From Pseudomonas mosselii (GTDB lineage: Bacteria > Pseudomonadota > Gammaproteobacteria > Pseudomonadales > Pseudomonadaceae), in contig NZ_CP081966.1 of the NCBI RefSeq assembly GCF_019823065.1, positions 5,363,501 through 5,427,500 on the forward strand: a stretch of DNA of 64,000 bases. The letters run 5' to 3'. Under the pieces are notes generated by a model, which did no database searches, had not been told where the DNA came from, and saw only the letters and a program-made list of their open reading frames with translations. Every line of letters starts with the position of its first letter. Position 1 is the stretch's first letter. Position numbers and translations under genes: made by a program. Shown piece after piece: positions 588 through 1,739 of the stretch.

Positions 588-613
588 TTATACAAACATC
601 GTGCATTGTACAG
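588..613. promoter_or_regulatory. Dyad operator site 1 (LitR/MerR type)
   Basis: TTATACAA-N10-TTGTACAG, equivalently TATACA-N12-TGTACA, in the 186-bp gap between the divergent TIGR01777 gene and the FAD oxidoreductase. The same spacing occurs in two further dyads at 1662-1687 and 1712-1737. The size and symmetry suit a dimeric MerR-family regulator, and the MerR gene of this operon (2714-3589) is the obvious candidate. Binding is inferred. Confidence 0.65.
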
Positions 614-662
614 GTTTACCTGGCAGCGTAGGCTGCGTATAGCTAGGTTCGAAGAGGCCATC

Positions 663-1649
663 ATGACAGTACCTATTGCCATCATCGGTGCCGGAATCGC
701 CGGTTTGTCCGCCGCCCAGGCCCTGCAAAAGGCCGGACAGACCGTTCATTTGTTCGACAAGGGCCACGGCAGCGGCGGACGCATGGCCAGCAAGCGCAGC
801 GATGCCGGCGCCCTGGACCTCGGTGCCCAGTACTTCACCGCCCGCGACCGGCGCTTTGTCGAACAGGTCCAGCAATGGGTGGCCAATGGCTGGGCTGCGC
901 AGTGGAAACCGCAGCTGTACAACTACCGCGATGGCGAACTGACCCCCTCCCCCGACGAACAAACCCGATGGGTTGGCGTGCCGCGCATGAGCGCCATCAC
1001 TCGCGGCCTGCTCAAGGATGTCACGGTGAACTTCGGCTGCCGCATCGCCGAGGTGTTCCGCGGCAAGCAATACTGGCACTTGCAGGACACCGAAGGCTGC
1101 AGCCATGGGCCGTTCAGCCAGGTGGTGATCGCCGTGCCGGCGCCCCAGGCCACCCCGTTGCTGGCCGCCGCACCCAAACTCGCGGCGGTTGCCGCCGGGG
1201 TGCAAATGGAGCCGACCTGGGCCGTTGCCCTGGGCTTCCAGACACCACTGGAAACCCCTATGCAGGGCTGCTTCGTGCAAGACAGCCCGCTCGACTGGCT
1301 GGCGCGCAACCGCAGTAAACCGGGCCGTGACGAGCACCTCGACACCTGGGTGCTACATGCCACCTCCAACTGGAGCAAACAGCATATCGACCTGCCCAAG
1401 GAAGAAGTGATCGAGCAGTTGTGGGGAGAATTTGCCGAACTGGTCGGCTGCGTCGTCCCCGCACCGACCTTTGCGCTTGCCCACCGCTGGTTGTACGCAC
1501 GCCCTGCCGTCAATCATGAGTGGGGCACGCTGGCCGATGCCGACCTGGGCCTGTATGCCTGTGGCGACTGGTGCCTGTCCGGTCGGGTCGAAGGGGCGTG
1601 GCTCAGCGGCCAAGAAGCCGCTCGACGCCTGCTGGAGCATCTGGAATAA
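663..1649 (+). CDS. NAD(P)/FAD-dependent amine-oxidase-like oxidoreductase
   Basis: Flavoprotein of 328 residues. The N-terminus MTVPIAIIGAGIAGLSAAQAL holds the GxGxxG dinucleotide-binding motif, followed by FDKGHGSGGRMAS, the second FAD/ribose contact of the renalase/amine-oxidase group. The C-terminal LGLYACGDWCLSGRVEGAWLSG is the closing FAD-binding motif of the same family. The in-frame reading continues upstream, but the ATG at 663 starts exactly at the Rossmann strand and is preceded by GAAGAGG. It is the first gene of the photolyase operon, after dyad 1 and before dyads 2 and 3. The substrate is unknown; a role in redox or light stress is inferred only from context. Confidence 0.88.
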   Translation: MTVPIAIIGAGIAGLSAAQALQKAGQTVHLFDKGHGSGGRMASKRSDAGALDLGAQYFTARDRRFVEQVQQWVANGWAAQWKPQLYNYRDGELTPSPDEQTRWVGVPRMSAITRGLLKDVTVNFGCRIAEVFRGKQYWHLQDTEGCSHGPFSQVVIAVPAPQATPLLAAAPKLAAVAAGVQMEPTWAVALGFQTPLETPMQGCFVQDSPLDWLARNRSKPGRDEHLDTWVLHATSNWSKQHIDLPKEEVIEQLWGEFAELVGCVVPAPTFALAHRWLYARPAVNHEWGTLADADLGLYACGDWCLSGRVEGAWLSGQEAARRLLEHLE

Positions 1650-1661
1650 TCGACAGCGAAT

Positions 1662-1687
1662 TTATACAAAAAAATATTCTTGTATAA
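1662..1687. promoter_or_regulatory. Dyad operator site 2
   Basis: TTATACAA-N10-TTGTATAA, a perfect 8-bp inverted repeat between the oxidoreductase and the DUF523 gene. Its right half contains TATAAG (1683-1688), resembling a -10 element, so the dyad may overlap a promoter for the genes from 1756 onward. Same architecture as dyads 1 and 3. Confidence 0.7.
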
Positions 1688-1709
1688 GTTTTCATCTGTG
1701 CTGGAATAG

Positions 1710-1739
1710 ACTTGTACAAACCGTGCAGCCTGTACAAGT
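1710..1739. promoter_or_regulatory. Dyad operator site 3
   Basis: ACTTGTACA-N12-TGTACAAGT, a perfect 9-bp inverted repeat 17 bp before the ATG of the DUF523-DUF1722 gene. Its centre is 50 bp from that of dyad 2, close to five helical turns, so both could be bound on one DNA face. It could also compete with translation or transcription start at 1756. Confidence 0.7.

What the first reader, a model, noticed from the sequence alone, without database searches (positions are those of the whole stretch)
588..1739. Three identical-spacing dyads before and inside a photolyase operon
Sites at 588-613, 1662-1687 and 1712-1737 all fit TRTACA-N12-TGTAYA. I saw no other copies in the window. They lie at the operon's promoters, and the operon encodes a LitR-class MerR protein. 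This defines a testable binding consensus for this regulator.
Basis: partly seen in the sequence, partly recalled or inferred. Interest (0 to 1): 0.7.

Follow-up and report, generated by a model that had tools for sequence, protein, structure and literature searches.

The report
Known blue-light repressor sites, Pseudomonas photolyase operon
The three matching DNA sites are real and are almost certainly where a light-controlled repressor sits in front of light-damage repair genes, but this binding sequence and this gene cluster were already published for a closely related Pseudomonas.

Summary
In detail: three exact TRTACA-N12-TGTAYA dyads at 589-612, 1663-1686 and 1713-1736, none expected in 100 shuffles. 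The string equals the PplR1-binding consensus of P. putida KT2440 quoted in PMC9758184, which footprints the related PmlR2 on two such sites. RudS, PplR1 and photolyase lie in the same order as PP_0741-PP_0739. Sites 2 and 3 form one operator pair before rudS, a tRNA 4-thiouridine eraser.

The genome has seven exact sites: three here, three at ufaM-, cryB- and SDR/chalcone-isomerase-type genes, and one in a prophage-like region. Upstream of rudS, 78 of 78 Pseudomonas genomes have a site; 67 have a pair 45-52 bp apart, 46 of them at 50. Outside the genus, a site is present in 18 of 19 loci with adjacent LitR and 3 of 67 without. Possible additions: longer arms, fixed pair spacing, a diverged promoter in putida-group species. 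Light response and binding were not tested; the original 2020 paper was not readable.

The parts
589..612 (.). Site 1: dyad TATACA-N12-TGTACA, 50 bp before the FAD-oxidoreductase ATG
   Evidence: exact match; in 69 of 78 Pseudomonas genomes an N12 site with at most 1 mismatch (exact in 21) lies more than 260 nt upstream of rudS within the 1.5-1.7 kb looked at
1663..1686 (.). Site 2 (operator A): dyad TATACA-N12-TGTATA, 7-bp perfect arms including one outer base
   Evidence: exact match; arms checked; corresponds to the -35-overlapping Site 1 of P. mendocina P6650
1713..1736 (.). Site 3 (operator B): dyad TGTACA-N12-TGTACA, 10-bp perfect arms, starts 50 bp after operator A
   Evidence: exact match; arms GACTTGTACA / TGTACAAGTC; corresponds to leader Site 2 of P6650
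1680..1707 (+). Inferred promoter between A and B: TTGTAT(1680-1685)-N16-TGGAAT(1702-1707) with TGC before it; alternatively TGTGCT (1697-1702), in register with the TATGAT of other species
   Evidence: alignment of operator pairs; coordinates checked; no start site mapped, and the consensus scanner did not report it
663..1649 (+). FAD-dependent amine-oxidase-like protein
   Evidence: Pfam Amino_oxidase, NAD_binding_8
1756..2724 (+). rudS: 2-thiouracil desulfurase (TudS) fused to DUF1722; tRNA 4-thiouridine eraser family
   Evidence: Pfam PF04463 + PF08349; Cys17, Cys49, Glu51, Arg60, Ser111, Ser113, Cys114 all present, the residues named for RudS_KT in PMC11417400
2714..3589 (+). pplR1 orthologue: class II LitR, MerR HTH + B12-binding_2, no B12-binding domain
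   Evidence: NCBIfam CarH model matched below its cut-off
3601..5037 (+). phrB: deoxyribodipyrimidine photo-lyase
   Evidence: Pfam; NCBIfam NF007955 above cut-off
5041..5721 (+). short-chain dehydrogenase-like protein
   Evidence: Pfam adh_short

Best explanation
The three dyads are operators of the class II LitR (PplR/PmlR) blue-light system. In the dark a LitR oligomer binds them and blocks RNA polymerase. Operator A (1663-1686) overlaps the -35 region and operator B (1713-1736) lies in the leader, so together they bracket the promoter of rudS-pplR1-phrB-SDR. Site 1 (589-612) does the same for the upstream FAD-oxidoreductase gene and, by read-through, the whole operon. In blue light a photoactivated short LOV protein, encoded elsewhere in the genome beside the second LitR, binds LitR and strips it from DNA. 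This induces photolyase (DNA repair), RudS (removal of photosensitive tRNA 4-thiouridine) and LitR itself. Shown here: the sites, their conservation, their linkage to LitR, the candidate regulon in this genome, the LOV partner gene and the catalytic residues. Shown by others in relatives: binding, light induction and LOV anti-repression. Inferred: that the same holds in this species, operon read-through, and that the two operators are occupied together.
For: Identical published consensus, footprints of PmlR2 on two such sites in P6650, and LOV anti-repression in P. mendocina. RudS, PplR1 and photolyase in the order of PP_0741, PP_0740, PP_0739; the products of PP_0742 and PP_0738 were not seen in a call. 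3 exact sites in the window against 0 expected. 7 exact sites genome-wide against 1 for the reversed control pattern, three of the other four at ufaM-, cryB- and SDR/chalcone-isomerase-type genes (type names by domain and analogy). One short LOV with Cys53 beside LitR no. 2; the other 15 matches to it are at most 33% identical and lie in frames of 376 aa or more. N12 spacing: exact in 71 of 78 rudS upstream regions, other spacings from 4 to 20 in 0 to 3 of 78; with one mismatch allowed 77 of 78 against 0 to 10; four control patterns 0 of 78. Outside the genus: site in 18 of 19 loci with adjacent LitR, 3 of 67 without.
Against: No binding or light data for this species. The published anti-repression was shown for PmlR2, not for the PplR1-type protein, and gel-shift and BIAcore data disagreed on whether LOV releases LitR from DNA. 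One of the seven exact genomic sites lies in a prophage-like region with no light gene recognised. One non-genus locus with adjacent LitR lacks a site, and three without LitR have one. No consensus promoter is reported between operators A and B here.
Confidence: 0.92

Rival explanations
1. The dyads are operators of another MerR-type or unrelated palindrome-binding factor, and the LitR gene is only a neighbour.
For: TGTACA is a common regulator half-site in general (recalled). Other recurring TGTACA spacings exist in the genus, for example the identical 17-mer TGTACATAATTTGTACA in at least 5 of the 40 genomes searched (whose place list was cut short).
Against: Published footprint of a class II LitR on the same consensus. 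The site tracks LitR presence across families, 18 of 19 versus 3 of 67; in the 58 loci fetched after the first look, 5 of 6 versus 1 of 52 (rows, corrected). Relatedness was not corrected for.
Confidence: 0.04
2. MerR-type activation: LitR sits between -35 and -10 and untwists an overlong spacer to activate, instead of blocking the promoter.
For: MerR-type HTH. Many MerR proteins work that way (recalled).
Against: In 53 of 64 N12-N12 pairs TTGAC sits inside operator A, and in 50 of these TATGnT follows after a normal 16-nt spacer, so the operators flank rather than fill the spacer. The P. mendocina protein is a repressor in vitro.
Confidence: 0.04
3. Only site 1 matters as operon promoter; sites 2 and 3 are internal sites with no working promoter in the putida group.
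For: In the window and the 15 named putida-group-like loci the canonical TTGACT/TATGAT pair is missing. The consensus scanner does not report a promoter between A and B.
Against: The A-B pair and its 49-51 bp spacing are kept in all 15 named loci although the promoter hexamers changed, and a TGTGCTGnAAT block is conserved there.
Confidence: 0.12

Closest known systems
PplR1-3 / PpSB-LOV light regulon of Pseudomonas putida KT2440 (Sumi et al. 2020, J Bacteriol; paper not held, known through PMC9758184, PMC11014904, PMC8508746 and PMC11417400)
   Same: Same operator consensus; RudS, PplR1 and photolyase in the order PP_0741, PP_0740, PP_0739; ufaM- and cryB-type genes among the candidate targets
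   Different: This genome has two clear LitR proteins instead of three (two further matches are weak HTH-only hits), one short LOV instead of two and one GTP cyclohydrolase I, so the PplR3/PpSB1/folE arm appears absent
PmlR2 / PmSB-LOV and promoter P6650 of P. mendocina (PMC9758184)
   Same: Two N12 dyads, one over -35 and one in the leader, before the first gene of the LitR1-photolyase operon
   Different: P6650 has TTGACT-N16-TATGAT; the window has TTGTAT and TGTGCT/TGGAAT instead, and an upstream gene with its own dyad
RudS (TudS-DUF1722) tRNA 4-thiouridine desulfidase (PMC11417400)
   Same: Same domain fusion and all seven named catalytic or cluster residues; the paper itself notes the LitR-PhrB-RudS operon
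   Different: Activity of this orthologue untested
Class I LitR/CarH (AdoB12 photosensor repressors)
   Same: MerR HTH; TGTACA-type half-sites (half-site similarity recalled)
   Different: No B12-binding domain; the DxHxxG-like stretch here is not conserved in all orthologues aligned

Membership tests
Class II LitR (PplR/PmlR) | MerR HTH plus B12-binding_2 (4-helix) without B12-binding domain | tested here: met
   MerR_1 8-75, B12-binding_2 91-140, no B12-binding domain; definition
Class II LitR (PplR/PmlR) | Operator T(G/A)TACA-N12-TGTA(C/T)A at its own operon | tested here: met
   consensus
Class II LitR (PplR/PmlR) | Gene set of KT2440 PP_0742-PP_0738 | tested here: inconclusive
   three of five products (PP_0741 RudS, PP_0740 PplR1, PP_0739 photolyase) match in order; PP_0742 and PP_0738 products not seen in a call and KT2440 DNA not compared
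Class II LitR (PplR/PmlR) | Genome holds a short LOV next to a LitR, with photoactive Cys53 | tested here: met
   148-aa LOV, Cys53, divergent from LitR no. 2
Class II LitR (PplR/PmlR) | Dark repression relieved by blue light through LOV | not testable with these tools
   needs bench work
Class I LitR/CarH | Complete cobalamin-binding domain with conserved axial histidine | tested here: not met
   no B12-binding domain; the His-containing stretch differs in 4 of the 7 proteins aligned (7 of 30 loci recovered by that script)
RudS | TudS fused to DUF1722 with Cys17/49/114, Glu51, Arg60, Ser111/113 | tested here: met
   residues
RudS | Removal of 4-thiouridine from tRNA | not testable with these tools
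   needs bench work

The most novel reading that the evidence does not exclude
The operator pair itself is the conserved device: two LitR dyads held about 50 bp apart are bridged by one LitR assembly that clamps the promoter, and a single LOV binding event releases the whole clamp. Selection then acts on operator-to-operator spacing more than on operator-to-promoter register. That would explain why putida-group species changed their promoter hexamers while keeping the 50-bp spacing, and why the spacing recurs in other families.
Probability: 0.3. Interest if true: 0.4.

Novelty: already known. Interest (0 to 1): 0.22.

Why it matters
It confirms from sequence alone, across many genomes, a published blue-light operator, and ties it to a gene set that should protect both DNA (photolyase) and tRNA (4-thiouridine removal) from light. 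The extended arms (ACYTRTACA-N12-TGTAYARGT) and the paired-operator rule may give a sharper search pattern for light regulons in Pseudomonadales. The central claim is not new.

Tried and rejected
Cobalamin sensing by this LitR: a DSHSLG stretch resembles the DxHxxG axial-His motif (recalled). It reads DNQSLE, NNHQLG or NNRQLS in 4 of the 7 orthologues that the script's regex recovered from 30 loci, so it was rejected. The LitR tally of 8 of 30 was a regex fault; with a better pattern it is 29 of 30.

Light-inducible folE arm: there is one GTP cyclohydrolase I. Reading its 3.5-kb neighbourhood by eye I saw no LitR or LOV, and none of the exact operators falls there.

Direct repeat instead of dyad: 'direct repeat' is how I recall the 2020 abstract, not from a call. 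Position profiles of the two halves agree better as an inverted repeat in all three site classes. Jensen-Shannon sums dyad/direct: A 1.88/2.75, B 0.81/2.21, far 3.40/5.15. The sequences are related, so this is not an independent test.

The 12 genomic sites with one mismatch (19 sites in all, reversed control 8) were not pursued. The extended pattern with up to 3 mismatches is uninformative as a whole (15 hits, control 25).

One search contained a name clash (two G176 loci), which gave 18 of 20 and 3 of 66. One search resolved it to 18 of 19 and 3 of 67 (test recomputed). The site rule (N12 with at most 1 mismatch, or N11/N13/N14 exact, within 400 bp) is essentially that, which had already been looked at for 29 loci and also allowed N10.

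Confidence values were not changed.

Full report
Observation. The pattern TRTACA-N12-TGTAYA has exactly three matches in the window, at 589-612, 1663-1686 and 1713-1736, against a mean of 0.00 in 100 dinucleotide-preserving shuffles. Site 3 has 10-bp perfect arms. The genes downstream are an FAD amine-oxidase-like protein (663-1649), a TudS-DUF1722 fusion (1756-2724), a MerR-type protein with only the B12-binding_2 domain (2714-3589), a photolyase (3601-5037) and a short-chain dehydrogenase (5041-5721). The host is a Pseudomonas: among 15 named relatives its LitR is closest to P. peradeniyensis (91% identical) and P. mosselii (90%). These are putida-group species (recalled).

Prior knowledge. 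It shows DNase I protection of two such sites in promoter P6650 by PmlR2. It also shows that illuminated short LOV protein inhibits PmlR2 binding in BIAcore and relieves repression in vitro, while its gel-shift result disagreed. PMC11014904 (passages) names a cluster PP_0738-PP_0742 with PP_0739 as photolyase and PP_0740 as PplR1. PMC11417400 (abstract and passages) names PP_0741 as RudS and already notes the LitR-PhrB-RudS operon. PMC8508746 (passages) reviews the same system. The original 2020 paper was not held, so what it says beyond these quotations is unknown to me.

The own genome has 7 exact sites, with 1 for the reversed control pattern. Besides the three here, one lies before a ufaM-type operon (CMAS domain), between a short LOV gene with Cys53 and a SnoaL-like gene, next to the second LitR. 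It is paired with an N13 site 51-52 bp away. One lies before an operon with DUF3833 and a photolyase-related DPRP protein (cryB type by analogy), and one between a divergent short-chain dehydrogenase and a chalcone-isomerase-like gene. The seventh is in a region with a phage integrase and a T7-type terminase, between two small genes without Pfam hits. It fits the extended pattern with one mismatch, so it may be real or chance. A direct search found only one short LOV in the genome.

Conservation inside the genus. rudS was found in 78 of 79 Pseudomonas genomes searched, two of them matching only the DUF1722 half. All 78 upstream regions were examined. Every one has at least one site within 260 nt of the match (N12 with at most one mismatch, or exact N11/N13). 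An exact N12 dyad is present in 71 of 78, other spacings from 4 to 20 in 0 to 3. With one mismatch allowed the counts are 77 against 0 to 10, and four control patterns with letters rearranged gave 0. In 67 of 78 there is a pair with starts 45-52 bp apart: 46 at 50, 11 at 49, 5 at 51, 3 at 46, one each at 45 and 52. The standard deviation is 1.1, against 7.2 for the distance from operator B to the aligned rudS start. Part of the latter comes from alignments beginning at residue 1 to 10. Eleven genomes lack such a pair under this rule; some have a partner with 2 mismatches at that distance. A counterpart of site 1 is found in 69 of 78, exact in 21. Of the 30 loci long enough to look, 29 carry the LitR HTH motif after rudS.

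Promoter architecture. Among 64 N12-N12 pairs, 53 have TTGAC at positions 12-16 of operator A, and 50 of those have TATGnT at positions 34-39. That is the mapped P. mendocina layout TTGACT-N16-TATGAT. The operators therefore bracket a normal sigma-70 promoter, which fits repression by blocking. In the window and the 15 named relatives this promoter is changed. The -35 candidate reads TTGTAT or TTGCAT five bases further on, and the -10 region reads TGTGCTGnAAT, while the pair spacing stays 49-51 in all 15. The promoter and its start here are inferences, and the consensus scan does not report them.

Outside the genus. Of 145 genomes of the order, 92 have rudS, with 95 matches. Seven short or weak matches were not fetched. 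The window's own match and one other of the own genus were left out, leaving 86 that were counted. A site was present in 18 of 19 loci with a LitR-type HTH within 1.5 kb and in 3 of 67 without. For the 58 loci fetched after the first look it was 5 of 6 and 1 of 52. A control pattern gave 1 of 20 and 1 of 66 in the uncorrected table. Relatedness was not corrected for. Spacings N13 and N14 appear in some other families, and pairs 49-51 bp apart recur outside the genus.

Conclusion. The finding is real, its reading is right in outline, and it is already known. Candidate additions are the longer arms, the fixed operator pair, the changed promoter in putida-group species, and the order-wide linkage of site and LitR. 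My searches of the held library and the passages read did not show these in print, but the key paper is not in that library.

Noticed in passing
L013:5956-6140: A decayed chalcone-isomerase-like gene (head seen by eye, tail aligned, middle missing, two frames) sits right behind the operator of the DPRP/cryB-type operon; an intact relative with its own operator is at L014:5609-6151.
   Followed up: partly
L015:5096-5119 (own genome 4033095-4033118): An exact operator-like dyad lies in a prophage-like region (phage integrase, T7-type terminase) between two small genes without Pfam hits; it could be a light-regulated prophage gene or chance.
   Followed up: partly
genus genomes G017, G019, G032, G037, G039: An identical 17-mer TGTACATAATTTGTACA recurs in at least five Pseudomonas genomes; it looks like the conserved site of a different regulator.
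   Followed up: no
L014:5540-5583: A TATACA half-site lies 14 bases before the N12 dyad, giving overlapping N14 and N12 arrangements that share a half-site between divergent genes.
   Followed up: no
G027 and G037 rudS loci (L132, L131): Two genomes match only the DUF1722 half of RudS (from residues 160 and 152) yet keep an upstream dyad.
   Followed up: no
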